The notes below the pieces were generated by a model. The model ran no database searches and was not told where the DNA came from. It saw nothing but the letters and a program-made list of their open reading frames with translations. A DNA stretch of 32,584 nt from Calothrix rhizosoleniae SC01 (GTDB taxonomy: Bacteria > Cyanobacteriota > Cyanobacteriia > Cyanobacteriales > Nostocaceae): NCBI RefSeq assembly GCF_900185595.1, contig NZ_FYBH01000341.1, positions 1 through 32,584 on the forward strand, given 5' to 3'. Position 1 is the stretch's first letter. Each line of letters begins with the position of its first letter. Position numbers and translations under genes: made by a program. Of this stretch, positions 5,771 through 26,773 are shown in pieces.

Positions 5771-6310
5771 ATGGCTCAATATTCTGAATCAATGGACGTG
5801 CCCGATATGGGGCGACGTCAGTTTATGAATCTTCTGACTTTTGGAACAGTTACTGGAGTTGCTCTGGGAGTACTGTATCCCTTTACTAAATATTTTCTGC
5901 CACCTGCTAGTGGTGGTGCTGGTGGTGGAGCCACAGCCAAAGACGAACTAGGCAATGATGTCAGCGTTGCTAACTTTTTGGATAGCCATAATACCGGGGC
6001 TCGCGTTCTCGTTCAGGGACTCAAGGGCGATCCTACCTACATTGTGGTAGAAAACAAAGAAGCAATTAGCGATTACGGTATTAATGCCATTTGTACCCAC
6101 TTGGGTTGTGTTGTGCCTTGGAATGCTGCGGAGAACAAATTCAAGTGTCCTTGTCACGGTTCCCAATACGCTGCAACGGGTAAAGTTGTTCGTGGTCCTG
6201 CACCTCGCTCTTTGGCTCTGAGTCATGTCAAGGTAGAAGACGACAAAATGGTCATCACTCCTTGGACTGAAACAGACTTCCGCACTGGTGAAGAACCCTG
6301 GTGGGCATAA
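5771..6310 (+). CDS. petC: Cytochrome b6f complex Rieske iron-sulfur protein
   Basis: PetC carries electrons from plastoquinol to cytochrome f in the thylakoid membrane. The 179-aa product has a Tat-like membrane anchor: GRRQF near residue 14, then a hydrophobic segment at about 20-43. A flexible GGAGGGAT hinge follows, then the Rieske domain. The 2Fe-2S ligands are C108 and H110 in CTHLGC and C126 and H129 in CPCHG. The length is normal for the major cyanobacterial Rieske protein. petA follows 139 bp downstream on the same strand, the classic petCA operon. The ATG at 5771 gives the canonical N-terminus [20 protein letters not shown]. Confidence 0.98.
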
Positions 6311-6449
6311 TTCAGTATCTCACCAGAGATAGCTGTATATATGCTCTAGGAAAATTCCTAAAAATGTGCTGAGTCACTAGTCCCCTGGCTATTGACCATC
6401 AAGTATTAACTATTGACTAATTATTCAGAGAACCCTTGTCCTTACAGAG

Positions 6450-7451
6450 ATGAGAAATCCTTGTACCACAACGAGTTTAACTCGTATTTCCAGAGCAATA
6501 ACCAAAATTTTGCTTGTTGCGATCGCTACTTTGACTTTTTTCTTCACTAGCGATTTGACTCTACCCCAATCTGCTGCGGCTTATCCCTTCTGGGCACAGG
6601 CGACCTATCCGGAAACCCCCCGTGAACCTACAGGAAGAATTGTTTGCGCTAACTGTCACCTAGCCCAAAAGGTTACAGACGTGGAAGTTCCCCAGTCTGT
6701 GCTACCGGATACTGTTTTCAAAGCGGTGGTGAAAGTTCCCTACGACACGAGCGTCAAGCAAGTAGGTGCTGACGGTTCTAAAGTCGGCTTAAATGTTGGT
6801 GCAGTACTAATGTTACCCGAAGGTTTCAAGATAGCTCCTGAGGAGCGGATTCCTGAGGAAATGAAAGAAGAAATTGGAGACGTTTACTTCCAAAACTATA
6901 CAGACGATACAGAAAACGTCATCCTTGTTGGTCCTTTACCTGGGGATGAGTATCAAGAAATTGTCTTCCCCGTTCTTTCTCCTAACCCAGCAACTGATAA
7001 AAACATCCATTTTGGTAAGTATGGAGTTTATGCAGGTGGTAATCGGGGACGAGGACAGATTTATCCCACCGGTGAAAAGAGCAACAACAACACTTATAAC
7101 GCCCCTGCTGCTGGAACAATTAGCCAGATTGCCAAGGAAGCAGATAGCGATGGTAATGTGAAATATACAGTTAGCATTCAAACCGAATCTGGGGAAACTG
7201 TTAGCGAGGAAATTCCCGTAGGTTTGGAACTGATTGTATCTGAAGGACAAGTAGTTGCTTCTGGAGAAGCTTTAACCAATAATCCCAATGTTGGTGGTTT
7301 TGGTCAAAAGGATACAGAAATTGTCCTCCAAAGTTCTGGTAGAGTTGCAGGATTAGTCGCCTTTATTTGTTTGACAATGTTGGCACAAACTATGCTTGTA
7401 CTCAAAAAGAAACAGGTTGAGAAGGTTCAAGCTGCGGAAATGAACTTCTAA
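6450..7451 (+). CDS. petA: Apocytochrome f
   Basis: Cytochrome f is the c-type heme subunit of the b6f complex and passes electrons to plastocyanin or cytochrome c6 in the lumen. The 333-aa precursor starts with a signal peptide ending SAAA just before Y45 of YPFWAQ, the mature N-terminus whose amino group ligates heme iron. The heme motif is CANCH at residues 66-70. The C-terminus has one membrane anchor (about 297-318, [18 protein letters not shown]) and a short KKKQVEKVQ stromal-side tail. The length is normal. It follows petC, and a terminator hairpin follows it. The ATG at 6450 gives a normal-length leader. Confidence 0.98.
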
Positions 7452-10387: not shown

Positions 10388-13300
10388 ATGGCTAAACAAA
10401 TAAATTCCCATCCCAAGTTATATGGTTTACTGATTGGTATTGATTGCTATCCACCCCATCTCTTGTCATTGGCAGGGAGTGTAAGTGATATTAACTATGT
10501 AGAAGAATTTCTCCTGCGTCAACCCCAAAAACCCACAAAGATTTTTAAATTAACCGCTTCTAATCCAAATCCAGATACACTGCAACCTGGTGAAGTACCG
10601 AAGCCCACGGAAGCAGAATCACAGTTACCCACTTACAAGAATATTGTCACCCAGTTCCATAAACTTACAGAAACCGCAGCACCAGGGGACTTAGTATATA
10701 TCCAATATTCAGGTCATGGAGGTCGTGCTAAAACGAATTATCCCCATATTAAGGGAGAAAATGACATTGATGAAGGACTTATTCCCGTTGATATTGGTAC
10801 TAGTGAAGGACAATATCTGCGTGATTTGGAATTAGCAACACTGCTCAAAAGAATGGTGGATAAGGGGTTAGTTGTTACCCTGGTGTTGGATTGCTGTCAT
10901 TCTGGTGGTACAGTGCGAGGAAAATACGCAGACATTCGCGGTTTAGATACCATTGATCAAATTCCCAGACCACTATCAAACCTGGTGGCTTCTCAGTCAG
11001 AATTAGCTGCAAATTGGTTGTCTTTAAAACCAAAAGAGGTAAAAAATGCAGTCATCACTCGTAAGGCAACAGCTGTTGCAAGTATGCTACCAGAAGTCAA
11101 AGGATATGTATTATTAGCTGCTTGTAGACCTTCGGAATCTGCTTGGGAATATACTATTGATGGCAAACAACGTAATGGTGCCCTGACTTATTGGTTGTTG
11201 GATACTTTAAATCAACCAATGCCGGGAATGACCTACAAAATGGTACACGATCGCATTAGTGCCAAAATCAAAACTCTGTTTCCCCAACAAACACCCATGC
11301 TTATGGGTGAAGGCGATCGCGTAGTATTTGGTAACCAATATGTCCACACTGAATATGCAGTTAATGTCATGCAGGTGAAGGTGAAGGGAAACATCACTAA
11401 AGTAGAGTTGGATGCTGGACAAGCACAGGGTCTGCGTAAAGGTGCAGAATTGGCGATTTATCCTCGTGGTTTAACTAGTTTTCGCAATACTCAGGAACGA
11501 TTGGCTCTAGTAGAAATTACGGAGTTAAAGGGAGCAAATTGTTGGGCAGACGTAACCACAATGCTGCAACCTGAATCAGTAATTGAACAAGGAGCCCAGG
11601 CTGTACTAACCTCTGCACCAGTCAAGTTGGTGAAGAAAGTACAGTTACTACAAGATCAGGATTTACCCTTAGAAAGAAATGCAGCTTTGCAAGCTGTGCA
11701 GGTGGCATTAACTGGTAACGGTTGGCTGGAATTAGTGGGTCTAGAGGAAGCTGCTGATTATCAGATAGATGTGAAAAAAATTACTTCCATCACAGATGCA
11801 GAAACATATCGTGTAGGGATTGACGAGGTAATTTATGAAATATGCGATCGCACCGGTGCACCTATTGTCCTTCGACCTGTGATCAGGGTGAGAGACAACA
11901 ATGCAGCTGAAACGGTAGTCAAGCGGTTAGTACATTTGGCTAAGTATCAAGGGATACAGGAATTGGATAACCATGATGGTAGTTCACCTTTGAGGGGGAA
12001 AGTAGTCATCGAATTGCTGGGGACACAGAAAGATTATGCATCAGGAGACGCAATTCAACCAGAGCCATTTGCTGACCTCAATGATCCAGAAATGAAAGCA
12101 GGGGAGCACTTATTCCTGAAAATTCACAACAACTATTCCGATATAATTAATGTTGCAGTCCTAGATTTGGGATCTGATTGGGCTATAGAACAAATATCCC
12201 CCCAAACTAGCCAGTTCACAGCTATCGACCCCGGACAAGAGGAATTCATCCCGATGAATATGAGCCTTCTTGAGGGAGAATATGAAGGAGAGGATATTTT
12301 CAAGGTTTTTGCAACCATTGGAATGGCTAACTTCCGTTGGTTGGAATTACCACCCCTAGACCAACCGATTCTTCCACCAGAAGCGAGAGGGGTATCAAGA
12401 AGCGATGGTGCTTTAGATAAATTATTGATGATGTTTGCTGCGGAACAGCCACCCACTCGCAAAGCTAACCCAATGGCTTTTCCCAGTCGTGAGTGGACGA
12501 CAGTGCAAGTTAGAGTTAGGGTGAAGGGCGATGAACCAACTGAGGGTAAACCCAACCAATCAAGCTCCTCAACTCGTGAGAAAATCCTCATTTTGATAGC
12601 CAATCCCCAAAGGAATTTCCAGCTATCCTCGAAAACAAGTGATATTGCTGGAAAAATATGGCGTTCAGCCAGCAGCGATAAATTTCAACTGGAACAAAGA
12701 GAAGTTGTAAGTACCCAAGATGTGCAAAACATTTTGTCAGAAGTGCAGCCCAGGATTGTTCATTTTTGCGGACAAGGAAATGGGAGTCAGGGACTACTTT
12801 TGCAGGATAATGAGGGACAACTAGTAAGTAGGGAAGCGATCGCAAACTTATTTCAGCAGTTTGCCAATGGGGTAGAGTGTGTACTGTTTAATGGTTGCTA
12901 TTCTCAAGTACAGACTGAAGCCCTTGGACAATATATCAACTATGTGATTAGTATGGGTGAGGATTTTCGAGGTGATGCTGCGATCGCTTTTACAGTTGGT
13001 TTTTATCAAGCACTAGGTTCTGGAAAGACAATCGAATCTGCTTACAAATTGGGTTGCGATTGTATTCAATTAGAAATTAAGTTAAGGACACCAACATTAC
13101 CTGAGGAATACAAACCTGTGTGGCTGAAAAAACCGGATTCAGAGCTAACATGGGAAGAATTTATTCAGAAGTTAGTACAGATTGAGGAATTGGTAAATTC
13201 AGCCTCGGAATTACCAGCAGCAACAAAAGACAAGTCACTCAGGTATTTGTTAGCTGCACAGGAAGAAGCACAGGCTACTGAACCAGATAAAGAGTTTGCA

Positions 13301-13435
13301 GCCTCTAATCTCAAACGGGTGGCTGAAACATTAAAAAATGTTACCGAAACCGTGACTTCAACTCAGACTTTATGGGGAAATGTGGAGCCAATATTATTAC
13401 AATTGAATAATTGGCTAAAGGTTGATGTATCTTAG
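10388..13435 (+). CDS. Orthocaspase (C14-type) with DUF4384-like and degenerate CHAT-like domains
   Basis: This is a 1015-aa multidomain protease. The caspase-like domain covers about residues 10-315: KLYGLLIGIDCY, the catalytic His H110 in YSGHGGR, and the catalytic Cys in LDCCHSGG (C170 by analogy with metacaspase DSCHSG). The middle, about 575-650, contains HLFLKIHNNYSDIINVAVLDLGSDW, which looks like DUF4384. A second caspase-like/CHAT-like domain spans about 735-900 (KILILIANPQRNF, VHFCGQG, LFNGCYS, AIAFTVGFYQAL). There the usual GHG histidine is Gln at residue 796, while the NGC cysteine C837 remains, so this domain is probably inactive as a protease. A roughly 60-residue helical tail (ATEPDKEFAASNLKRVAETL) ends the protein. 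Such proteins cleave after basic residues and are linked to stress and conflict responses. No partner gene is adjacent. Confidence 0.85.
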   Translation: MAKQINSHPKLYGLLIGIDCYPPHLLSLAGSVSDINYVEEFLLRQPQKPTKIFKLTASNPNPDTLQPGEVPKPTEAESQLPTYKNIVTQFHKLTETAAPGDLVYIQYSGHGGRAKTNYPHIKGENDIDEGLIPVDIGTSEGQYLRDLELATLLKRMVDKGLVVTLVLDCCHSGGTVRGKYADIRGLDTIDQIPRPLSNLVASQSELAANWLSLKPKEVKNAVITRKATAVASMLPEVKGYVLLAACRPSESAWEYTIDGKQRNGALTYWLLDTLNQPMPGMTYKMVHDRISAKIKTLFPQQTPMLMGEGDRVVFGNQYVHTEYAVNVMQVKVKGNITKVELDAGQAQGLRKGAELAIYPRGLTSFRNTQERLALVEITELKGANCWADVTTMLQPESVIEQGAQAVLTSAPVKLVKKVQLLQDQDLPLERNAALQAVQVALTGNGWLELVGLEEAADYQIDVKKITSITDAETYRVGIDEVIYEICDRTGAPIVLRPVIRVRDNNAAETVVKRLVHLAKYQGIQELDNHDGSSPLRGKVVIELLGTQKDYASGDAIQPEPFADLNDPEMKAGEHLFLKIHNNYSDIINVAVLDLGSDWAIEQISPQTSQFTAIDPGQEEFIPMNMSLLEGEYEGEDIFKVFATIGMANFRWLELPPLDQPILPPEARGVSRSDGALDKLLMMFAAEQPPTRKANPMAFPSREWTTVQVRVRVKGDEPTEGKPNQSSSSTREKILILIANPQRNFQLSSKTSDIAGKIWRSASSDKFQLEQREVVSTQDVQNILSEVQPRIVHFCGQGNGSQGLLLQDNEGQLVSREAIANLFQQFANGVECVLFNGCYSQVQTEALGQYINYVISMGEDFRGDAAIAFTVGFYQALGSGKTIESAYKLGCDCIQLEIKLRTPTLPEEYKPVWLKKPDSELTWEEFIQKLVQIEELVNSASELPAATKDKSLRYLLAAQEEAQATEPDKEFAASNLKRVAETLKNVTETVTSTQTLWGNVEPILLQLNNWLKVDVS

Positions 13436-17251: not shown

Positions 17252-18331
17252 TTACCGAGGAACCGGAACTTTATTCAGTATCGATGCAATTACCGCCTCT
17301 ATTTGTAAACCATCTAACATTGCCTCTGGTTTGAGTATGAGTCGATGGCGTAATAATGGGGGTGCAACTGTCTTCACATCATCGGGTGTCACAAAATCTC
17401 TACCTGCTAAATATGCCGAGGCTTGGGATGTAACGAACCAAGCACCAGCAGCACGAGGAGAAGCACCCAAGGCTAAATCTGGATGTTGGCGGGATGTTTT
17501 CACTAAAGCCAGGATATAGTCAATAATTGCTTCAGAAACTTTTATTTGTTGGACTGCTTGTCTTGCTTGTAAAATTTCCTCTACAGCAGTTACAGTTTGC
17601 AAGCGAGCAATATCTAAACGCCTTGCAGCAAAGCCTGCTTGACGGTTGAGTAACATTTGTTTTTCTGCGGCTTCATCGGGATAATCCACCACCAATTTGA
17701 AAAGAAATCGATCTAACTGTGCTTCTGGTAAGGGATAAGTTCCCTCAAACTCTAAGGGGTTTTGGGTAGCAATTACCCAGAATAAATCTGGTAAAGGTAA
17801 GCTTTCTCCATCCAGTGTCACCTGCATTTCTTCCATCGCCTCTAAGAGGGCTGCTTGGGTTTTGGGGGGAGTGCGGTTAATTTCATCTGCTAGCAGTACT
17901 TCAGTAAATAATGGTCCCTTTTTGAGGCTGAATTGACGGGTAAGTAAGTCGGCACAATAAAACCAAACTATGTGAAGAATAGTAAATAAGCCTAAAACCC
18001 TTGTTCCCCCTGCTCCCTGCTCCCTGCCCCCTGCCTTATCCAAACGATAATTTTTTACGCCAACCTACTTATTCAAATCAAAAATGTTCGTACCAGTAAT
18101 ATCTGCTGGTAAAACATCTGGTGTTAGTTGTATCCGACTAAACTCAGCCTGAATAGATTGTGCCAGTACTTTTACTAATAAAGTTTTACCTGTACCGGGT
18201 ACACCTTCTAAAATAATGTGTCCCCCTGCAAGTAAGGCGATTAACAACTGATGGATGATATGAGATTGTCCAACTATGACTTGGTTAATTGCTTTACTAA
18301 GTCGATTTAATATCGGGTTAATGTCACTCAT
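17252..18331 (-). pseudogene. moxR (AAA+ ATPase) interrupted by a 131-bp MITE
   Basis: The 5' part (18331-18072) encodes about 86 family residues, including the Walker A EGVPGTGKT, and ends at NIFDLN. The 3' part (17940-17252) resumes at RQFSLKKGPLFTEVLLADEI with Walker B, sensor 1 IATQNPLE and the C-terminal lid. Between them is the MITE at 17941-18071, which brings an in-frame TAG and a shift of frame. Joining the flanks across one TA gives NIFDLNTRQFSLKKGP, a normal MoxR sequence. Any 3' product would have to start inside the MITE (TTG at 18043) and would lack Walker A. The gene is therefore almost surely inactive. It belongs with the DUF58 gene 190 bp downstream. A separate, intact MoxR is in the island at 22225. 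Confidence 0.92.
17941..18071 (-). mobile_element. 131-bp MITE, copy 2, inside moxR
   Basis: It has the same length and orientation-reversed sequence as 2975-3105, with about four differences by eye. The inverted ends are TAAGTAGGTTGGCG and CCGACTTACTTA (minus-strand reading). The insertion point in moxR fits a TA target duplicated to both sides, as for Tc1/IS630-type transposition. It includes a GGGAGCAGGGAGCA heptamer run. Confidence 0.88.
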
Positions 18332-18731: not shown

Positions 18732-19661
18732 ATGACTAATAATGAATTTAATCTCCCTAACTTTGATAATGCAGAAGATTTACTGAATGACTTATTTGAA
18801 GAAGTAAAAAGCAAAGAAAGTGAATTAGCAGGTGGAGATACTCAAGATTTAACAAGAGGAGCAACTGCAATTCAAAGATTGAAGGAAACTACAGTCACAT
18901 TTGGAGATCCTCGTAGTAGATTAATTCCTCTTACCTTAGAAGGTTTTAAAGCAAAGGGAGTGGAATTAAGCTACGAAATTAAGCAATTAATGAATCAATA
19001 TGATTTTTATTCTATGGTTGTTAGTGTTGATCTAAAACCGCAATCTAGTGTTTTAATTTCCAAGTTAGAATGTCAGCTTGATTTTGGTTCAAAAGGTAAT
19101 CAGCAACCAATAGTACATCGCATTATCCCAGACAGTAAATGGCAAACGCTACTTAATGCGGGAGTAAGCCTGAATATGGGATTAGATGCCAATTTAGATG
19201 TTGGTATTGAGGTTGATGCTTCTGAATTAACTAAAATTGCTAATCTTCCTGATTATGATAAGTTTAAAGCTAGTGTAGGGACTAAGGATAAATTCAAAGC
19301 ATTTATTGTCTTAGATGGCTTAAATTATCAATGTGGTCATTTTAATATTTTTGCTCAAGGGGAAGATAATTCTCGGTGCTATTGGCGAATTGAAGAGCCA
19401 GAAATCCAGGATAAATCCACAGTAAAATTTGACATTATTTTCAAAGTTCCTAAAGGATTAGAGTCTATTGATTTAATTGGTAATGTCTGGATTGAACCGA
19501 GTATTGATTGGTTGTGCGGTGAAGTATCTCACGTAACACAAGCTTTACCTGGTTATTTAAAAAGTTTGTTTGGGAGTAAAGAGAAAGCAGCTAAAAGCTT
19601 TGCTGTTGGGAGAAAAGAAGAATGGGTTAATGAACAACAAATTATCTTACCTAAATCATAG
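18732..19661 (+). CDS. Unknown 309-aa protein, first gene of the island
   Basis: I do not recognise a family. The acidic N-terminus (about 1-45, FDNAEDLLNDLFEEVKSKES) looks helical or disordered. Residues about 55-290 are predicted mostly beta: alternating patterns such as YSMVVSVDLKPQSSVLISKLECQLDF, WQTLLNAGVSLNMGLDANLD, FKAFIVLDGLNYQ and KSTVKFDIIFKVP. There is no signal peptide or membrane helix. The C-terminus is KKEEWVNEQQIILPKS-like and basic to neutral. It is 67 bp before the CHAT gene and on the same strand, so it is probably co-transcribed. A sensor, a protease substrate or a pore-type effector released by the CHAT protease are all possible, and the sequence does not decide. Confidence 0.75.
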   Translation: MTNNEFNLPNFDNAEDLLNDLFEEVKSKESELAGGDTQDLTRGATAIQRLKETTVTFGDPRSRLIPLTLEGFKAKGVELSYEIKQLMNQYDFYSMVVSVDLKPQSSVLISKLECQLDFGSKGNQQPIVHRIIPDSKWQTLLNAGVSLNMGLDANLDVGIEVDASELTKIANLPDYDKFKASVGTKDKFKAFIVLDGLNYQCGHFNIFAQGEDNSRCYWRIEEPEIQDKSTVKFDIIFKVPKGLESIDLIGNVWIEPSIDWLCGEVSHVTQALPGYLKSLFGSKEKAAKSFAVGRKEEWVNEQQIILPKS

Positions 19662-19728
19662 AGTATTGACTCATTTGTTTTTATTGAGTTTTTGAAATTT
19701 GTCAATTTTATATTTAAATTTTATAAAG

Positions 19729-21087
19729 ATGAGTCAATATTCTTACCATATTATTGTCCCTAATGAGAATACTGTTAAAATAAAAAAATTGACTACTCAG
19801 TCAACACAAATAGAACAGTTAACTGGGAAATTAAGTCTTGATAAAATAACCAGTAATATTCAAGAAACTATCAGAAATACTGCTAACTTAAAAGATGAAC
19901 AAATTCATAAAGTAGGAGAAGCTTTATTTGAGGCTTTATTTGATAGTCAATTAAGAGAAGATTTTTTATATTTTTATACAGAAGTTACCAAGAAGCAAAA
20001 ACAGACATTGCAAGTTATTTTAGAAATTAATGAAATAGCGATGCCTGAAGTGGTAGCTTATCCTTGGGAGTTAATCTGTTTACCCCAGAAATATAATCAA
20101 AGGGATATTCATTTTGCAACTAACCGAAAATTAAGCTTTTTTCGTTGTCGATATCAATTAGAAGAAGAAGCAAAGCTATCCATTAAAGTTAATGAGGGTG
20201 AACAGCTAAAGATTGCTTTAGTTGTCTCTAAACCTACGGCTGAACCTCGATTAAGTAATGTAGAATATCAGGAAGTACAGCAGTATTTAAGAAGTTTAGA
20301 TAGTCAATATAATCAAGTCAAATTTCTACCCGTTATGGATTCTCTGAATTCTTATAATATTTTAGAAAGATTAGAGGAAGATGAGCCAGATATTTTTCAT
20401 TTTATTGGTCATGGTCAATTAATTGAAGAAAATGGAGAAGATATAGGACAAATTGCTTTTGTCAATGATTCAGGAAAAGCGGATTGGAAAGACGCTAAAA
20501 TGTTCAGTCAATTATTTAATGGTCATACTCCAAAAATTGTCATTTTACAAGCTTGTGAAACTGGAAAACAATCTGAAACTAATGCTTTTAGTAGTGTAGC
20601 TTCTCGTTTAATGCTGCAAGGAATTCCTGTAGTAATAGCTATGCAATATAAAGTTTCTAACCAAATAGCCAGTACTTTTGTGAAAGAATTTTATTCACAA
20701 ATAATCAAAGGTAATTCTGTTGATATTGCAGTCCAAAGAGCTAGATCCAGAATTGTTATTGAAAATGGGTTTAATCAACGAGATTTTGCTATTCCGGTGA
20801 TTTATATGAATGCTTCTGATGGCTATTTATGCATTACAGAAATAGAACAAAATCCAGCTATTCCAAATAATCCTAGATTAAAATCTTTACAAAACCGAAA
20901 AGAGCAAATCAAGTCTCAAATAGTAGAACTCGAAAAGCTTAGTAATATATATACTCAATACATTAAAGCAGAATATGATGGAGCTAGAAGAAGTCGGCTT
21001 AATCGGCAAATAGATAACTATTCACAAGAAATTGATGAACTATACGATAAGCTTGATAATATTGAAGATAAAATTAAAGAAATTTAA
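19729..21087 (+). CDS. CHAT domain protease with C-terminal coiled-coil module
   Basis: The 452-aa product is a caspase-like CHAT protease. The N-terminal part (about 1-140) includes EVVAYPWELICLP, a usual CHAT-associated motif. The catalytic domain has the histidine H228 in HFIGHG and the cysteine C276 in LQACETG, with ASRLMLQGIPVVIAMQYKVS after it. Both residues expected for activity are present. From about residue 383 a charged coiled coil follows (LKSLQNRKEQIKSQIVELEK, then QIDNYSQEIDELYDKLDNIE). This same module opens the next protein, which suggests that the two bind through it. A TTG at 19699 extends the frame by ten residues. ATG 19729, MSQYSYHIIVPNE, is the natural start. In defence systems CHAT proteases act as effectors that cleave partner proteins. 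Confidence 0.9.
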   Translation: MSQYSYHIIVPNENTVKIKKLTTQSTQIEQLTGKLSLDKITSNIQETIRNTANLKDEQIHKVGEALFEALFDSQLREDFLYFYTEVTKKQKQTLQVILEINEIAMPEVVAYPWELICLPQKYNQRDIHFATNRKLSFFRCRYQLEEEAKLSIKVNEGEQLKIALVVSKPTAEPRLSNVEYQEVQQYLRSLDSQYNQVKFLPVMDSLNSYNILERLEEDEPDIFHFIGHGQLIEENGEDIGQIAFVNDSGKADWKDAKMFSQLFNGHTPKIVILQACETGKQSETNAFSSVASRLMLQGIPVVIAMQYKVSNQIASTFVKEFYSQIIKGNSVDIAVQRARSRIVIENGFNQRDFAIPVIYMNASDGYLCITEIEQNPAIPNNPRLKSLQNRKEQIKSQIVELEKLSNIYTQYIKAEYDGARRSRLNRQIDNYSQEIDELYDKLDNIEDKIKEI

Positions 21088-21126: not shown

Positions 21127-22206
21127 ATGTCATCTAGTGGAAAATTACAAACTTTAGAAAATCGTCGAGAACGAATTGAATCTCAAATAGCAGAACTCGA
21201 CAAACTTAGTAATAAATGTACTCAAGATATTAAAGCAGAAACTAATGGAGCTAGAAGAAGTCAGCTTAATCTACAAATAGATAACTATTCACAAGAAATT
21301 GATGAACTATACGATAAGCTTGACAATATTGAAGATAAAATCAATAATCTTAAATCCTCCTCACCTGAGTTAAGCTTAAATAATCACTTAGATAATCCCA
21401 AGAATCAGCAAGAATTAAGTATTGATGAATCCTTACATTATATAGATTTCAAAAAAGCTTTAGATACTTTTAACAAAATACAGTCTAAATTTAATAAAGA
21501 TGGAGATGTTGCATTATTTTTCATGGAAGAACATTTAATTAAGAGTGGAAATTTATGTTTACAAAGACTAAGAGATGAAATAGCTCCAAATACTTCTAAT
21601 TTTTACAGGCAACATTTTCGTTACTGTCATGTGAAATATACTTCAGGAAATTTAGAAGCAGTAATGCAAGGAATAGGTAAATTTTTTGAAGTGAAACAAG
21701 AAGAAGTTACTATTGAATTACTTATTCAAAAAATAGGTAATTCTTTACAAAATAATTCGGTTTTGTTTATAGAAATTAATTGTGATATTAGTGATGCCAG
21801 TGAAATTGAGCCGTTAATACCTTGGTTTATTAATTGTTTTTGGCAACCTTTAAAAACAAAAGTTGATACGGCAACTAAGGATTATAGAGGAATTAAAGTT
21901 GTAGCTGTAATCATTTCTGACATTTTACTGAATCCCATATTATCAACAGATAAATTATCTTTCTATTTTGATGACGATCATAATTGCTTTGACAGAAATA
22001 AATTAATTAAAATTCCTTTAGATAATTGGACAAAAGATGATATTGAAAATTGGCTGGTTAATTATGGTAATCCTAGTTTGAAAAAACTAGAAACAAATAA
22101 AATAGCTCAGAAAATTTATAACACAACCCAAGGATTCCCTAATGCTGTCTGTCTTAAATTACAACAAGAATGGCAAACTTTAATTAATACACCTACTTCT
22201 TGTTAA
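21127..22206 (+). CDS. Coiled-coil adaptor with an inactive-STAND-like domain
   Basis: The 359-aa product has two parts. Residues 1-75 are a coiled coil almost the same as the end of the CHAT protease (LENRRERIESQIAELDKLSN, then ARRSQLNLQIDNYSQEID). After a Ser/Pro/Asn-rich linker, residues about 105-355 form a domain that begins with a helix and a hydrophobic strand, DVALFFMEEHLIKSGNLCLQ. The order of elements resembles the P-loop region of a STAND NTPase, but without a GxxxxGK[ST] motif. Further on are SVLFIEINCDI and VVAVIISDILL strands and a final helical part. I therefore read it as an inactive STAND-type adaptor of the kind found with MoxR/vWA conflict systems; that assignment is tentative. 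The gene is 39 bp from the CHAT gene and 18 bp from the MoxR gene. Confidence 0.7.
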   Translation: MSSSGKLQTLENRRERIESQIAELDKLSNKCTQDIKAETNGARRSQLNLQIDNYSQEIDELYDKLDNIEDKINNLKSSSPELSLNNHLDNPKNQQELSIDESLHYIDFKKALDTFNKIQSKFNKDGDVALFFMEEHLIKSGNLCLQRLRDEIAPNTSNFYRQHFRYCHVKYTSGNLEAVMQGIGKFFEVKQEEVTIELLIQKIGNSLQNNSVLFIEINCDISDASEIEPLIPWFINCFWQPLKTKVDTATKDYRGIKVVAVIISDILLNPILSTDKLSFYFDDDHNCFDRNKLIKIPLDNWTKDDIENWLVNYGNPSLKKLETNKIAQKIYNTTQGFPNAVCLKLQQEWQTLINTPTSC

Positions 22207-22224
22207 TCAATTATAGATTCAATC

Positions 22225-23208
22225 ATGACTTATAAATTTGAAAACAAACCCAAAAAACGACCTTCTATCCCTCATCCTGATTCACCCAAAAAGATTGAAC
22301 CTTATATTGCACCTGATGAATTAATCGATGCCGTTAATTTAGCTATTTTCTTGCGTCGTCCACTATTATTAGAAGGAGAAGCAGGTTGTGGAAAAACTAG
22401 ATTAGCACTCGCAGTTGCTTATGAATTAGGATTACCCTTTTATCGTTGGGATATTCGCTCAACAACTAAAGCTCAAGAGGGTTTATATGAATATGATGCT
22501 ATCCTCAGACTTCATGATGTTCAAACTCAAAAAGCAAAATTAGAAAATAATAATCAATATAAAGGTAATACTAAAAACCCTGATATTCCTGAAGATTATC
22601 TAACTTTTGGAGCAATTGGTAAAGCTTTTAGGTCAGATGAACGTGCGGTAGTATTAATTGATGAAATAGATAAAGCAGATATCGATTTTCCCAACGATTT
22701 ACTAACAGTTTTAGATGAACCTTGGGAGTTTAAAATTAGGGAAACAGGAGAGACTATTACTGCTAAATCAGACTGTCAACCAATCGTCATTATTACCAGT
22801 AATAAGGAAAAAGGTAATTTACCTGCTCCTTTTTTACGTCGTTGTATTTATTATTATGTCAAGTTTCCTAATAATCCTGATGCACTTCAAAAAATTGTTG
22901 ACATCCATTATCAACATAAGCAAGATGTTAAAGAAAATATCAATCCTCCCCATAGTGAATTAGTCAAAAAAACAGCTGAACTCTTTATTAAAATTCGAGA
23001 TGATAAAGGATTGTTTAAAATTCCCGGTACGAGTGAATTTTTAGACTGGCTAGATGCACTTTACTGTTGTCAGTCGAAACAAAATCCCCAACCTCCTTAT
23101 CCTGTTAATAAGTTAAAAGCAGGGGAGTTAATTCCTTCTCGAGAGTTGATTTTTAAAATTCGTCAAGATTGGCAAAAAAATACATCTTTCTCTCAACCAA
23201 GTCCGTAA
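22225..23208 (+). CDS. MoxR-type AAA+ ATPase of the island
   Basis: The 327-aa product has Walker A GEAGCGKT at residues 51-58 (K57), a WDIRSTTKAQEGLYEYDA segment, Walker B AVVLIDEIDKAD, sensor 1 VIITSNKEK and an arginine-finger region APFLRRCIYYYVKFP. A C-terminal lid follows. The family remodels protein complexes, usually with a vWA partner, and the vWA gene is next (63-bp gap). This ATPase keeps every motif, unlike the broken moxR at 17252, and it differs strongly from that one in sequence. It is likely the regulated switch of the system. The ATG at 22225 follows the previous stop by 18 bp. Confidence 0.93.
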   Translation: MTYKFENKPKKRPSIPHPDSPKKIEPYIAPDELIDAVNLAIFLRRPLLLEGEAGCGKTRLALAVAYELGLPFYRWDIRSTTKAQEGLYEYDAILRLHDVQTQKAKLENNNQYKGNTKNPDIPEDYLTFGAIGKAFRSDERAVVLIDEIDKADIDFPNDLLTVLDEPWEFKIRETGETITAKSDCQPIVIITSNKEKGNLPAPFLRRCIYYYVKFPNNPDALQKIVDIHYQHKQDVKENINPPHSELVKKTAELFIKIRDDKGLFKIPGTSEFLDWLDALYCCQSKQNPQPPYPVNKLKAGELIPSRELIFKIRQDWQKNTSFSQPSP

Positions 23209-23271: not shown

Positions 23272-24339
23272 ATGTTTAAACCTGAGCCTTATTTAATAAC
23301 TCTTTTTTACCGTTTGCGTGAAGACGGTTTTAATTTGAGTATCAGGGAATATTTTTCTGCTTTAGACGCAATTAAAAAAAGTTGGGGAACTCAAAATAAA
23401 GAAGACTTTAAAAAACTCCTACGCTTGTTATGGTGTAACTCTTTAGAACAACAAGATCATCTGGATTTGATCTTTGATACCATTGTCATTGAATCTGAAG
23501 AAACTGAGAAACAAACCACAAATCAACCTAGAGACACCAGAAAACCTACAAATCAAGACCAATTTGACTCAGATTCATCACAAGTTGTTTCTTCCAACAC
23601 CTCAATAGAAACCCCTTCAACAGTAACAACCAAACCAGCGACTCAGGATTTATCACCATTACCCATTAGCACTCCCCAACCAATACAGGAATATGAGGAT
23701 GATGATGAATTTAATACTCATTACCCCATTTCTCGCCGTTTTATGGTTTATAGTTGGCGTTATTTACGTCGTCCTATTGCTGACGGAATCAAGGATGTTT
23801 TAGATATCAAGATGACTGTAGAAGAAGTCACTAAACAAGGATTTTTCTTACAACCTGTCTATCGTCGCCGAGAAAAAAATCATGCTCATTTACTGATTTT
23901 AGTCGATCAAGAAGGCTCGATGACTCCTTTTCATCATTTTAGTCAAGATTTAGTCGAAACTGCCCAATATGAAAGTTCTATAGAAAAAGTAGATGTTGCT
24001 TATTTTCATAATCTTCCAGCAGAATACATTTATCTAGACCGTTTTTTAACCGATAAAATTTCTTTAGAAACGGTTTTAAGTAAATGTGATAGTGAAACTA
24101 GAGTATTAATCGTTAGTGATGCAGGTGCAGCCAGAGGATACCGTCACAGAGAAAGAGTTTCAGCTACAACTGAAGTAATTTGGGAAATTCAACAACATAC
24201 TAATTTAATTGCATGGCTCAATCCTGTTCCTAAACCAAGGTGGAATAGTACCACAGCTAAAATTATCACTCATTTAGTACCGATGTTTCCCATGAATCAG
24301 GAGGGTTTAGTACAGTCAATTTCAACACTGCAAAGGTAA
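23272..24339 (+). CDS. vWA domain protein, partner of the island MoxR
   Basis: The 355-aa product has an N-terminal helical region (about 1-75, LITLFYRLREDGFNLSIREY, as in CoxE/vWA partners). A low-complexity Thr/Gln/Pro/Ser linker follows at about 80-140, then a vWA domain. The metal site is imperfect: D212-Q-E-G-S216 replaces DxSxS, with Glu at the middle position. A later VSDAGAARG segment could supply the last ligand. This DQxGSM form may be normal for this subfamily. Spacing to the next gene is 9 bp, which implies translational coupling. vWA proteins bind partners through the metal site, so it probably links the MoxR ring to the lectin-fold protein or to the effector. Confidence 0.88.
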   Translation: MFKPEPYLITLFYRLREDGFNLSIREYFSALDAIKKSWGTQNKEDFKKLLRLLWCNSLEQQDHLDLIFDTIVIESEETEKQTTNQPRDTRKPTNQDQFDSDSSQVVSSNTSIETPSTVTTKPATQDLSPLPISTPQPIQEYEDDDEFNTHYPISRRFMVYSWRYLRRPIADGIKDVLDIKMTVEEVTKQGFFLQPVYRRREKNHAHLLILVDQEGSMTPFHHFSQDLVETAQYESSIEKVDVAYFHNLPAEYIYLDRFLTDKISLETVLSKCDSETRVLIVSDAGAARGYRHRERVSATTEVIWEIQQHTNLIAWLNPVPKPRWNSTTAKIITHLVPMFPMNQEGLVQSISTLQR

Positions 24340-24348
24340 AAAAAATAC

Positions 24349-25956
24349 ATGAATCAAATAACAGATAAAATCATAGCCCAGAATAAAGTTGAGCGATTTG
24401 TCAGTCGCTTTGAATCTTCTTATCATTTGTTAGCTTGTCATGCTGCTTTACCTTTAGTATTAACTCCAGAATTAGTCAATTATCTCAGAGTCCAGTTTCT
24501 CAAAAGTGAAGGAGTACCTTGGATTGCTGAAGCTGATTTATTGCTGTCTGATTTGTGTCGTCCAGTGGGTTATGAACTTTATGTAATGGATGAAGCTGTG
24601 AGAACTTATTTATTACATAAATTAGAACAAGATAAAAGATTTGGTGAGAAAAGAATTAAGGATATTGCTCGTTTATTATTGAACTATGTTAAACATTTAG
24701 CTAAAAAAAATCCTTTTCTGAGCCGGAAAGAGTTAAAAACTCAGGAATGGGGCGCAATGTTATATTTAGATACAGAGCAAACTGTGAGAGAAATAGCAAG
24801 AGCTATTTGTGAATGTGTAGATCAAGCAGAAATAGCTCGTTTACTCAAAATTAGTAAAGACTTTAAACAACAAATAGCTTCATCAGGGCAATTTCAGGAT
24901 TTTTTAGATTATGCTCAACTTGTTAATGATGCACTTAGAAACCGCGAACAAGTTAGTTTAGAAGCAATGACAAGCTCTCATGTGGTGGCTGGTGATGAGT
25001 TAACTGTACCAAAAAGTTTAGTTAATTCTTTTACAACCTTTAAAGTAGCAACCATCAAAATCACAGAAACCCACACCTTTGAGTTTACTATAGCCACCTT
25101 AGAACGTCAGTCAGGCAAAGGTAAAGGTAGAAATAAATGGGTGATTAACCGTCAACAAAGCCAAGCAGAGGGCATTATTGAGATACTAGGAGAAGGAATT
25201 GAACTCGAACTGATGAAAATTCCCACAGGGACATTCTGGATGGGTGCGCCGAAAAGTGAATTAAAAAGTCGAAACAGTGAAAGACCACAACACCAAGTAA
25301 CAGTTCCATCCTTCTTTATGGGCAAATATCCTGTCACTCAAGCACAGTATGAGACAATTATGGGTAAAAATCCTTCTCGCTTCAAAGGAGATAAAAAAAG
25401 ACCTGTAGAACAAGTTTCCTGGTACGATGCAGTTGAGTTTTGCGATTACTTATCCCAATATACAGGTAGACAATATCGCCTTCCCAGTGAAGCAGAATGG
25501 GAATATGCTTGTCGTGGGGGAACTACTACGCCATTTCACTTTGGTGAGACAATTATATCTGAATTGGTAAACTATAAGGCTAAACAAACTTATGATGCTG
25601 GTTCCAAAGGAAAATATAGTAAAGAAACAACACCTGTGGGTAGTTTTGAGGTAGCTAATGTCTTTGGGCTGTATGACATGCATGGGAACGTTTGGGAATG
25701 GTGTGTTGACCATTGGCATGGTAACTATGAAAATGTGCCCACCAACGGCAGTGCATGGTTAAACAAAGATAAGAATGAGAATCGTTCTCATGTGCTGCGG
25801 GGTGGTTCATGGGCCAGCGATCCTTCCTACTGTCGCAGTGCCTATCGCAGCAATAACTACTCAACCCTCCGCTTCAGCTATTTCGGGCTGCGGGTTGTGT
25901 GTGTGATTGGTGGCTCGCCCACGACTCTTAAGTTCACCAATCAGAAATGGGAATAA
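24349..25956 (+). CDS. Helical-domain fusion to a formylglycine-generating-enzyme-fold (C-type-lectin-like) domain
   Basis: The 535-aa product has a helical N-terminus (about 1-215: YHLLACHAALPLVLTPELVN, then GVPWIAEADLLLSDLCRPVG). This region is common in cyanobacterial proteins of these conflict operons. A short linker follows, then the FGE-sulfatase/CLec fold at about 280-530: MKIPTGTFWMGAP, YPVTQAQYETIMG, VSWYDAVEFCDYLS, RLPSEAEWEYACRGGT, GLYDMHGNVWEWC, RGGSWASDPSYCRSAYR and FGLRVVCV. True FGEs have two active-site cysteines in the GGS segment. Here only the second (YCRSAYR) is present, so it is unlikely to make formylglycine. The 3' block at 25806-25905 looks like a DGR variable repeat. 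The next gene starts 4 bp after the stop. A role as the third, ligand-sensing subunit of the MoxR/vWA system is my inference. Confidence 0.88.
   Translation: MNQITDKIIAQNKVERFVSRFESSYHLLACHAALPLVLTPELVNYLRVQFLKSEGVPWIAEADLLLSDLCRPVGYELYVMDEAVRTYLLHKLEQDKRFGEKRIKDIARLLLNYVKHLAKKNPFLSRKELKTQEWGAMLYLDTEQTVREIARAICECVDQAEIARLLKISKDFKQQIASSGQFQDFLDYAQLVNDALRNREQVSLEAMTSSHVVAGDELTVPKSLVNSFTTFKVATIKITETHTFEFTIATLERQSGKGKGRNKWVINRQQSQAEGIIEILGEGIELELMKIPTGTFWMGAPKSELKSRNSERPQHQVTVPSFFMGKYPVTQAQYETIMGKNPSRFKGDKKRPVEQVSWYDAVEFCDYLSQYTGRQYRLPSEAEWEYACRGGTTTPFHFGETIISELVNYKAKQTYDAGSKGKYSKETTPVGSFEVANVFGLYDMHGNVWEWCVDHWHGNYENVPTNGSAWLNKDKNENRSHVLRGGSWASDPSYCRSAYRSNNYSTLRFSYFGLRVVCVIGGSPTTLKFTNQKWE
25806..25905 (+). 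other. Candidate DGR variable repeat 1
   Basis: After RGGSW the codons GCC AGC GAT, then TCC TAC, and later AGC AAT AAC TAC, ACC CTC CGC TTC AGC TAT, almost all end in C or T. That is what adenine-directed mutation of AAC/AAT template codons produces. The block ends in a fixed GC-rich segment at 25882-25905 (TTCGGGCTGCGGGTTGTGTG and four more bases) that is identical in the next gene at 26720-26743. Confidence 0.6.
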
Positions 25957-25960
25957 TCCA

Positions 25961-26773
25961 ATGCTAAAAACAAAAACAGTCATTCAATACGAACAAAGGA
26001 CAGCGCAATATTTTATTGAAAACTTGGGGAATGGGGTTGAACTAGAGATGGTGTTGATTTCTAGTGGTAATTTTCCAATGGGCGCACCAGAAGATGAGGA
26101 AGGTCGCAATGAAGGTGAACGTCCCCAACACCCAGTAGCAGTTACATCTTTCTGGATGGGCAAATATCCTGTCACTCAAGGGCAGTATGAGGCAATTATG
26201 GGTAAAAATCCTTCTCACTTCAAAGGAGATAACTTACCTGTAGAAAGAGTTTCTTGGTACGATGCAGTTGAGTTTTGCGATCGCCTATCTCAATATACAG
26301 GTAAACAATATCGCCTTCCCAGTGAAGCAGAATGGGAATATGCTTGTCGTGCGGGAACTACCACTCCATTTCACTTTGGGGAGACAATTATATCTGAACT
26401 AGCAAACTATAAGGCTGAATACACTTACGGTGATGGATCCAAAGGGATTTACCGTGGAGAAACAACACCTGTGGGTAGTTTTGAGGTAGCTAATGCTTTT
26501 GGGCTGTATGACATGCATGGGAACGTTTGGGAATGGTGTGTTGACCATTGGCATGGTAACTATGAAAATGCGCCCACAAACGGCAGTGCATGGGTAGAAC
26601 CTGAAAATAAAGATAAGAATCGTTCTCGAGTGCTGCGGGGTGGTTCGTGGCTCAACAATCCAGAGACCTGCCGCTCCGCCTACCGCCTCTTCAACTCTCC
26701 GGACTACGATCACCTCGCTTTCGGGCTGCGGGTTGTGTGTGTGGTTGGTGGCTCGTCCAGGACTCTTGTGTAG
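25961..26773 (+). CDS. Formylglycine-generating-enzyme-fold (C-type-lectin-like) protein, probable DGR target
   Basis: The 270-aa product is a tandem paralogue of the C-terminal half of the preceding protein and lacks its helical domain. It contains LGNGVELEMVLISSGNFPMG, YPVTQGQYEAIMGKNPS, RLPSEAEWEYACRAGT, GLYDMHGNVWEWC, RVLRGGSWLNNPETCRSAYR and FGLRVVCVVGG. As in the first copy, the first catalytic Cys of true FGEs is missing. Long stretches are identical at the DNA level (for example about 69 bp around 26508), so the duplication is recent or homogenised. Only the block at 26648-26719 differs strongly. The ATG at 25961 is 4 bp after the previous stop. An open frame also extends back to 25907 inside the previous gene, but it is unlikely to be used. 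Two hairpins follow 38 bp after the stop. Confidence 0.88.
   Translation: MLKTKTVIQYEQRTAQYFIENLGNGVELEMVLISSGNFPMGAPEDEEGRNEGERPQHPVAVTSFWMGKYPVTQGQYEAIMGKNPSHFKGDNLPVERVSWYDAVEFCDRLSQYTGKQYRLPSEAEWEYACRAGTTTPFHFGETIISELANYKAEYTYGDGSKGIYRGETTPVGSFEVANAFGLYDMHGNVWEWCVDHWHGNYENAPTNGSAWVEPENKDKNRSRVLRGGSWLNNPETCRSAYRLFNSPDYDHLAFGLRVVCVVGGSSRTLV
26639..26743 (+). other. Candidate DGR variable repeat 2
   Basis: The codons after RGGSW are CTC AAC AAT, then ACC TGC, later TAC CGC CTC TTC AAC TCT, and TAC GAT CAC CTC GCT. The many NNC/NNT codons and the high GC contrast with the AT-rich, A/T-ending codons of the rest of the operon. The 24-bp 3' segment equals that of repeat 1 and would be the site where mutagenic homing initiates. 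No template repeat is in the window. Confidence 0.65.

What the first reader, a model, noticed from the sequence alone, without database searches (positions are those of the whole stretch)
25806..26743. Two tandem lectin-fold genes carry candidate diversity-generating-retroelement variable repeats
Seen: the two paralogues are almost identical in long DNA stretches, including about 69 bp around GLYDMHGNVWEWC and 24 bp at the 3' edge of the block. The 70-bp block between RGGSW and FGLRVV differs at most variable codons, with no length change. Those codons are nearly all NNC or NNT (CTC, TTC, TAC, GCC, AGC, CGC, GAT), and the block is GC-richer than the AT-rich operon. Known: DGRs mutate adenines of a template repeat and write them into the 3' end of C-type-lectin or FGE-fold genes, and AAC/AAT codons then become NNC/NNT. 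Inference: both genes are or were DGR targets, served by a reverse transcriptase elsewhere in the genome.
Basis: partly seen in the sequence, partly recalled or inferred. Interest (0 to 1): 0.87.

Follow-up and report, generated by a model that had tools for sequence, protein, structure and literature searches.

The report
Retroelement-written sensor genes, engine apparently lost
Two neighbouring genes of a cyanobacterial conflict (immune-like) operon carry a hypervariable tip of the kind written by a diversity-generating retroelement, but the reverse transcriptase and template that would write it were not found in this genome assembly, only a broken fragment of the machinery.

Summary
In detail: both FGE/lectin-fold genes end in a GC-rich block of NNC/NNT codons between near-identical flanks. 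Gene B (25961-26773) is convincingly a DGR variable repeat. Against the template (TR) of same-genus genome G001, 18 of 31 adenines changed but only 7 of 77 other bases. Against paralogue C380, 18 of 31 TR-A columns differ and 3 of 77 others; non-A columns are homogenised (2/71) while the gene upstream differs at 152/582. It keeps the VR-type 3' end AGGACTC. Gene A (24349-25956) is weaker (19/31 vs 14/77, no homogenisation, altered 3' end): probably an older, retired target. I count 13 of the genome's 16 FGE genes with DGR-type ends. No reverse transcriptase or TR was found in the assembly. Target C407 is followed by a broken Avd remnant, and same-genus genome G002 has a broken RT. So 'served by an RT elsewhere in the genome' is not supported; loss of the engine is likelier, although the assembly seems to lack contigs under 3 kb. 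The operon (CHAT protease, iSTAND, MoxR, vWA, FGE, FGE) matches published DGR-diversified conflict systems: a known kind. The apparently frozen repertoire is the interesting part.

The parts
25961..26773 (+). Gene B: FGE/lectin-fold protein, CLec-only target (ATG 25961; the open frame begins at TTG 25907)
   Evidence: PF03781 E=1.5e-55; phmmer to DGR target TvpA 2y3c E=5.6e-25
26651..26719 (+). Variable repeat core of gene B
   Evidence: 18/31 adenine vs 7/77 other mismatches to G001 TR; non-A columns homogenised with C380 2/71 vs 152/582 upstream
26759..26765 (+). AGGACTC, VR-type 3' end (IMH-like) of gene B
   Evidence: GGA-type end present in 25 of 28 distinct VRs and 0 of 25 distinct TRs taken from relatives
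24349..25956 (+). Gene A: N-terminal extension of about 280 aa without a Pfam match + FGE domain
   Evidence: PF03781 E=4.2e-53 over residues 288-517
25813..25881 (+). Variable repeat core of gene A, probably older or retired
   Evidence: 19/31 vs 14/77 mismatches to G001 TR; non-A columns not homogenised with B (13/71)
25921..25927 (+). ACGACTC: altered form of the VR-type 3' end in gene A
23272..24339 (+). vWA (CoxE-like) protein of the operon
   Evidence: PF05762 E=6.2e-9
22225..23208 (+). MoxR-like AAA ATPase (MoxR by operon context; Pfam gives AAA_5/AAA)
   Evidence: PF07728/PF00004 E about 5e-8
21127..22206 (+). iSTAND protein with N-terminal EAD9-like helical domain
   Evidence: PF19995 E=1.9e-12; EAD9 E=0.0067, below cut-off
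19699..21087 (+). CHAT protease with the same EAD-like C-terminus
   Evidence: PF12770 E=2.8e-23; C-terminus 68% identical over 75 aa to the iSTAND N-terminus
18732..19661 (+). 309-aa protein without a Pfam match, 37 bp upstream of CHAT, possibly first gene of the operon
   Evidence: gaps between genes 37, 39, 18, 63, 9, 4 bp

Best explanation
A and B are sensor-type FGE/lectin-fold proteins of an iSTAND-MoxR-vWA conflict operon whose C-terminal ligand-binding tips were rewritten in the past by a trans-acting diversity-generating retroelement (adenine-mutated cDNA copied from an AAC/AAT-rich template into the 3' end of the gene). In this strain the engine (Avd, RT, template) appears to have decayed, leaving about 13 of 16 FGE genes with fixed ('frozen') variable tips. 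Gene B was rewritten relatively recently from the same template as the dispersed paralogues C380 and C407; gene A stopped being rewritten earlier or used another template. SHOWN: the adenine-biased pattern for B, the related template/RT/Avd in G001, no RT or TR found in the held assembly, an Avd remnant with an in-frame stop and a truncation next to target C407, a broken RT in G002. INFERRED: real loss rather than an assembly gap, the order of events for A, and the sensor function.
For: B vs G001 TR: 18/31 A mismatches vs 7/77 others, p=2.5e-7. B vs C380: 18/31 TR-A columns vs 3/77 others, p=1.3e-9. Homogenised non-A columns: 2/71 vs 152/582 upstream, p=9e-7. Positive control, the G001 VR beside its RT: 20/31 vs 0/77. 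Control from the same genome, the ordinary-looking FGE gene L013: 18/31 vs 22/41, p=0.45. G001 has TR, Avd (bAvd PF22296 E=2.8e-22) and RT beside an FGE target. 3' end rule: GGA-type end in 25 of 28 distinct VRs, 0 of 25 distinct TRs from relatives, and B has the VR form. Nine further FGE genes in this genome carry a second, longer VR type (by eye); in the column tally, which took 11 rows (7 from this genome, 4 from G001/G002), columns with three or four different bases fall at codon positions 1 and 2 in 30 of 33 cases. RT not found; TR not found. Avd remnant C407:371-481(-), 59% identical to G001 Avd over 37 aa, stop at codon 8, similarity ends after codon 37, a DUF2887 gene follows at the contig end. 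G002 RT in two fragments with a stop. In the flanks held of the other 15 FGE genes no Avd or RT match better than E=1.5 was seen.
Against: The assembly has 472 contigs; of 20 contigs sampled the three shortest are 3,109-3,163 bp and none is under 3 kb, so short contigs, and with them an RT/TR, may be missing; the two same-genus genomes have 8 and 10 RVT_1 hits against 0 here. Contigs C407 and C225 end about 600 and 70 bp beyond their FGE match, so little flank could be checked there. Avd was searched only in the loci held; the one genome-wide DNA query that included it scored only 40 of 375 candidates and missed even the remnant. Gene A alone is a weak case: 14/77 non-adenine mismatches, core p=0.0065, and its best fit among 21 same-length template rows (20 distinct) still has 12-13 non-A mismatches of 41-46. 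C407, too, has 10/77 non-A mismatches. Two columns (55, 56) were treated as template A after looking at the VRs; the count without them gives the same result for B vs C380. The FGE paralogues L005 and L006, left unassigned, also show A bias (25/31 vs 13/41; 22/31 vs 17/41), so the A-bias test alone does not separate target from non-target.
Confidence: 0.75

Rival explanations
1. The DGR is intact and active, but its RT and template lie on a short or unassembled contig; A and B are live remote targets.
For: No contig under 3 kb among 20 sampled; FGE contigs C407 and C225 end just after the VR; B and C380 are nearly identical at non-A columns, implying recent rewriting; G001 keeps Avd, RT and TR within a few kb of a target.
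Against: Genome rated 99.89% complete; the Avd gene beside target C407 has a stop and is truncated, and other sequence follows it; RT decay also in G002; A has drifted at non-A columns.
Confidence: 0.22
2. Ordinary paralogue divergence of a loop under diversifying selection, with no retroelement; conserved scaffold codons mimic an A-bias.
For: A alone is only modestly A-biased (19/31 vs 14/77; core p=0.0065); L005 and L006, not assigned as targets, show a similar bias; scaffold residues are conserved in FGE proteins.
Against: B vs C380: homogenised non-A columns including third codon positions (2/71) while the gene upstream differs at 26%; an A-rich template of the same design lies beside the RT in G001 and its cis VR differs at 20/31 A and 0/77 other positions; the VR-specific 3' end is conserved; the ordinary-looking FGE gene L013 shows no bias.
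Confidence: 0.03
3. Gene A is not a variable repeat, or was copied from a different template; its shared flanks with B come from gene conversion after duplication.
For: 73-bp and 25-bp identical flanks beside a block that differs at 13/71 non-A columns; A's TGTCGCAGTGC wording occurs in the second G001 TR (L154) and the G003 and G004 TRs; altered 3' end.
Against: 22/23 NNY codons and 12/12 pyrimidines at AAY template codons fit a DGR past; no template of another type fits A clearly better.
Confidence: 0.4

Closest known systems
Nostoc punctiforme DGR locus Npun_F4885-F4892 (PMC12691664, passages read)
   Same: CHAT protein, MoxR, vWA and two neighbouring DGR target genes in one locus; adenine mutation of both targets was detected by resequencing
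   Different: There the RT and putative Avd sit in the locus; in the window nothing of the cassette was found after gene B. Homology was not tested here, only the described order
iSTAND/VMAP MoxR-vWA ternary conflict systems (Kaur et al. 2020, PMC7159879, passages read)
   Same: iSTAND, MoxR, CoxE-like vWA, EAD-type domains, FGE (FGS) domains, DGR association
   Different: The passages read describe DGR association chiefly for VMAP systems with vWA fused to FGS; here the system is iSTAND and FGE is on separate genes
Clade 5A/5E cellular DGRs of multicellular bacteria (Dore et al. 2024, PMC10907252; abstract, section 5, section 11 part 1 and passages read)
   Same: [quoted passage not shown] degenerate loci with missing or pseudogenised machinery are reported
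   Different: In that genome each class keeps one complete locus; here no complete locus was found
Remote variable proteins of cyanobacteria, e.g. Nostoc PCC 7120 all3226 (Vallota-Eastman et al. 2020, PMC7517822, section 6 and passages read)
   Same: Dispersed CLec targets, remnant TR-VR homology without proximal RT; [quoted passage not shown]
   Different: That genome keeps two DGRs; here the whole assembly appears to lack the machinery

Membership tests
Diversity-generating retroelement (complete system) | DGR-type reverse transcriptase in the genome | tested here: not met
   (0 hits; draft assembly, short contigs probably missing)
Diversity-generating retroelement (complete system) | Template repeat in the genome | tested here: not met
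   only VRs and chance matches (same caveat)
Diversity-generating retroelement (complete system) | Accessory Avd protein | tested here: inconclusive
   a broken remnant at C407:371-481(-) in the loci held; no genome-wide Avd protein search was made, and the DNA query that included avd missed even this remnant
DGR variable repeat / target gene (B) | Mismatches concentrated at template adenines | tested here: met
   18/31 vs 7/77 against the G001 TR; 18/31 vs 3/77 against C380
DGR variable repeat / target gene (A) | Mismatches concentrated at template adenines | tested here: inconclusive
   19/31 vs 14/77, no homogenisation
DGR variable repeat / target gene (A and B) | VR at the 3' end of a C-type-lectin/FGE-fold gene | tested here: met
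   PF03781 for both, TvpA 2y3c match for B; fold itself not modelled
DGR variable repeat / target gene (B) | VR-specific 3' end differing from the template's (IMH vs IMH*) | tested here: met
   B AGGACTC as in relatives' VRs
DGR variable repeat / target gene (A) | VR-specific 3' end differing from the template's (IMH vs IMH*) | tested here: not met
   A has ACGACTC, unlike both the VR and the TR form
DGR variable repeat / target gene | Ongoing hypermutation in the population | not testable with these tools
   no reads or sister strains of the same species
iSTAND MoxR-vWA ternary conflict system | iSTAND + MoxR AAA + vWA genes in one operon | tested here: met
   gaps of 18 and 63 bp between the three
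iSTAND MoxR-vWA ternary conflict system | Effector-associated domain shared by iSTAND and a protease effector | tested here: inconclusive
   EAD9 on iSTAND below cut-off; CHAT C-terminus 68% identical to it over 75 aa
iSTAND MoxR-vWA ternary conflict system | Anti-invader function | not testable with these tools
   proposed in the cited papers, not shown

The most novel reading that the evidence does not exclude
A whole set of DGR-written receptor tips (about 13 genes in two VR families: caspase-, CHAT- and NACHT-fused and operonic sensors) has been fixed by genome-wide loss of the retroelement, with separate decay in a same-genus species, so that the DGR acted as a temporary engine whose products are kept as a germline-like frozen receptor repertoire.
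Probability: 0.45. Interest if true: 0.65.

Novelty: new member of a known kind. Interest (0 to 1): 0.48.

Why it matters
If the engine is truly gone, three related genomes (G001 with an intact RT, G002 with a broken one, this one with none found) give a natural series for asking whether DGR-made receptor variants stay useful, and stay under selection, after diversification stops. That bears directly on the untested idea that these targets are antigen sensors of bacterial conflict systems. As a practical point, a search that starts from the RT would miss such genomes: the variable repeats are recognisable from paralogues and from a relative's template.

Tried and rejected
Tried without result: RVT_1 and DGR-RT searches of the own genome; TR search by VR DNA, by pattern and by the G001 TR. 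The 14-kb G001 RT locus and the G002 RT locus as DNA against the own genome gave FGE genes, housekeeping flanks and short repeats, with no row over RT, Avd or TR, but only 40 of 375 and 40 of 558 first-look candidates were scored, and one search missed the Avd remnant that one search found, so these negatives are weak. The C169 hit showed no FGE-like reading frame in the motif scan. The idea that the tandem FGE pairs of G001:C29 and G002:C139 are orthologous to A/B was dropped: similarity of the operon proteins there is only 27-62%, against 75-85% (MoxR, vWA) in Trichodesmium (L135) and Xenococcus (L134) MAGs. A phage-borne close relative of the RT was looked for in viral contigs: the 12 loci confirmed share 28-37% identity, so nothing close was seen with this query. 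No template of another type fits A clearly better than the G001 TR.

A search of 99 genomes for the VR anchor was void: I mistyped the pattern by one N, so it could not match even the window; its zeros mean nothing and it used the last genome search.

I did not model the structure. PADLOC gave only weak or partial matches for the operon proteins.

Full report
WHAT IS THERE. The window is a whole contig (C435) of a 5.97-Mb, 472-contig genome rated 99.89% complete; petC/petA-like genes (5771-7451, recognised by me from the translations) make it a cyanobacterium, whose name I could not establish. Genes A (24349-25956) and B (ATG 25961, end 26773) are the last two of a tight gene row: 309-aa protein, CHAT protease, iSTAND, MoxR-like AAA, vWA, A, B, with gaps of 37, 39, 18, 63, 9 and 4 bp. 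The C-terminus of the CHAT protein and the N-terminus of iSTAND are 68% identical over 75 aa, as expected for paired effector-associated domains. Both A and B have an FGE-sulfatase domain; B matches the DGR target TvpA of Treponema denticola (2y3c, E=5.6e-25), the block aligning with TvpA's C-terminal end (a plain PvdO chain, 5hha, scores higher, E=1.4e-37).

The identical flanks are 73 and 25 bp, the block is gap-free, NNY codons are 22/23 (A) and 20/23 (B), and GC is 0.54-0.59 against 0.35 for the operon. A and B differ at 38 of 108 columns.

IS IT A DGR VARIABLE REPEAT? The genome holds 16 FGE genes above the Pfam cut-off (a 17th match is a sub-cut-off piece of the C380 frame). By eye, 13 end in DGR-type blocks: four of the window type (A, B, C380, C407) and nine of a longer type; L005 and L006 are unclear and L013 is ordinary. 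No template was found in the held assembly, but the same-genus genome G001 has an intact-looking cassette, FGE target - Avd - RT - template, whose template reads RGGSWNNNPENCRSANRNRNNPDNDNNNIGLRVVC. Against it the G001 cis target differs at 20/31 adenines and 0/77 other bases; B at 18/31 and 7/77; C380 at 15/31 and 6/77; C407 at 16/31 and 10/77; A at 19/31 and 14/77. Several of B's non-adenine differences are shared with C380 and C407 and are best read as differences between the two species' templates. B against C380 gives 18/31 at TR-adenine columns and 3/77 elsewhere (p=1.3e-9), and the non-A columns are far more alike (2/71) than the gene upstream (152/582; p=9e-7): this is what copying from a common template leaves behind. 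For A the non-A columns differ from B at 13/71, no less than the upstream gene (95/586, p=0.61) and more than its last 180 columns (16/180, p=0.048). The ordinary-looking paralogue L013 shows no adenine bias (18/31 vs 22/41), but the unassigned L005 and L006 do (25/31 vs 13/41, 22/31 vs 17/41), so the bias alone is not decisive and I lean on the homogenised columns and the 3' end.

THE 3' END. In the RT-bearing loci of relatives and in the same-genus genomes a GGA-type end follows 25 of 28 distinct VRs and 0 of 25 distinct templates that the motif scan caught (the three VRs without it are in L094, L108 and L110). This looks like the IMH/IMH* distinction known for DGRs (recalled). B has AGGACTC, A has ACGACTC; 9 of the 16 FGE genes of this genome have AGGAYT, and C380 and C407 have variants. 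I infer that A may have been retired by this change.

WHERE IS THE ENGINE? RVT_1 gives no hit at E<=10 and the DGR RT of the same-family genome G017 gives no candidate, while 25 of the 98 other genomes searched (G017 itself included) list a hit of at least 62% identity over at least 344 of 357 residues (rows, counted by me; three of the 25 best rows contain a stop). A 37-aa Avd remnant starts 84 bp downstream of target C407's stop codon, has a stop at codon 8, loses similarity after codon 37 and is followed by other sequence and a DUF2887 gene at the contig end. G002 has an RT in two fragments (residues 1-118 and 118-187) with a stop. This favours real loss. Against it, no contig under 3 kb turned up among 20 sampled, three being just above, so short contigs may be missing, and Avd was not searched genome-wide by protein. 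I put loss at roughly three to one.

FUNCTION. Published work proposes that such DGR-diversified FGE proteins are antigen sensors or effectors of MoxR-vWA conflict systems (PMC7159879, passages; PMC10907252, section 11 part 1), and describes a locus of the same layout in N. punctiforme with detected adenine mutation (PMC12691664, passages). Other targets here are fused to caspase (C407), CHAT (C225) and NACHT/GUN4 (C380) domains, and the C409 pair lies in a second gene row with an EAD4 protein and an AAA ATPase. Relatives of the operon with FGE genes whose protein ends look DGR-like (by eye) occur in Trichodesmium and Xenococcus MAGs. Sensor function remains inference.

NOVELTY. Remote and remnant variable proteins and degraded cassettes are in print (PMC7517822 section 6; PMC10907252 section 5). 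In the literature searches (listings) and the passages read I saw no report of a genome keeping a dozen variable repeats without any DGR RT; that is a limited search. Hence a new member of a known kind, with a bolder reading (frozen repertoire) that remains open.

Noticed in passing
G000:C407:331-481 (L009): Avd remnant with stop and truncation 84 bp downstream of a caspase-FGE target, next to a short dispersed repeat and a DUF2887 gene at the contig end.
   Followed up: yes
window 17252-18331 (-): A second MoxR-like ATPase frame appears split in two ORFs by a short insertion containing a dispersed-repeat-like 'REQGAGG' stretch (seen translations).
   Followed up: no
window 10388-13435 (+): 1015-aa caspase (PF00656) protein with a weak CHAT-like C-terminal part, a second conflict-type protein in the same window.
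   Followed up: no
G001 and G002 loci L157, L158, L160, L161, L163, L166, L167: The longer VR type (family 2) also occurs in both same-genus genomes, yet no template of that type came up with the G001 TR query; one copy (L161) has a frame-breaking change in the VR.
   Followed up: partly
G001:C95 (L154): A second template-VR pair about 350 bp apart with no DGR RT listed on that contig: a candidate RT-less cassette served in trans.
   Followed up: no
G000, many contigs (query L124:4157-4198): A roughly 40-bp repeat shared at about 100% identity between G001 and over a dozen places of this genome.
   Followed up: no
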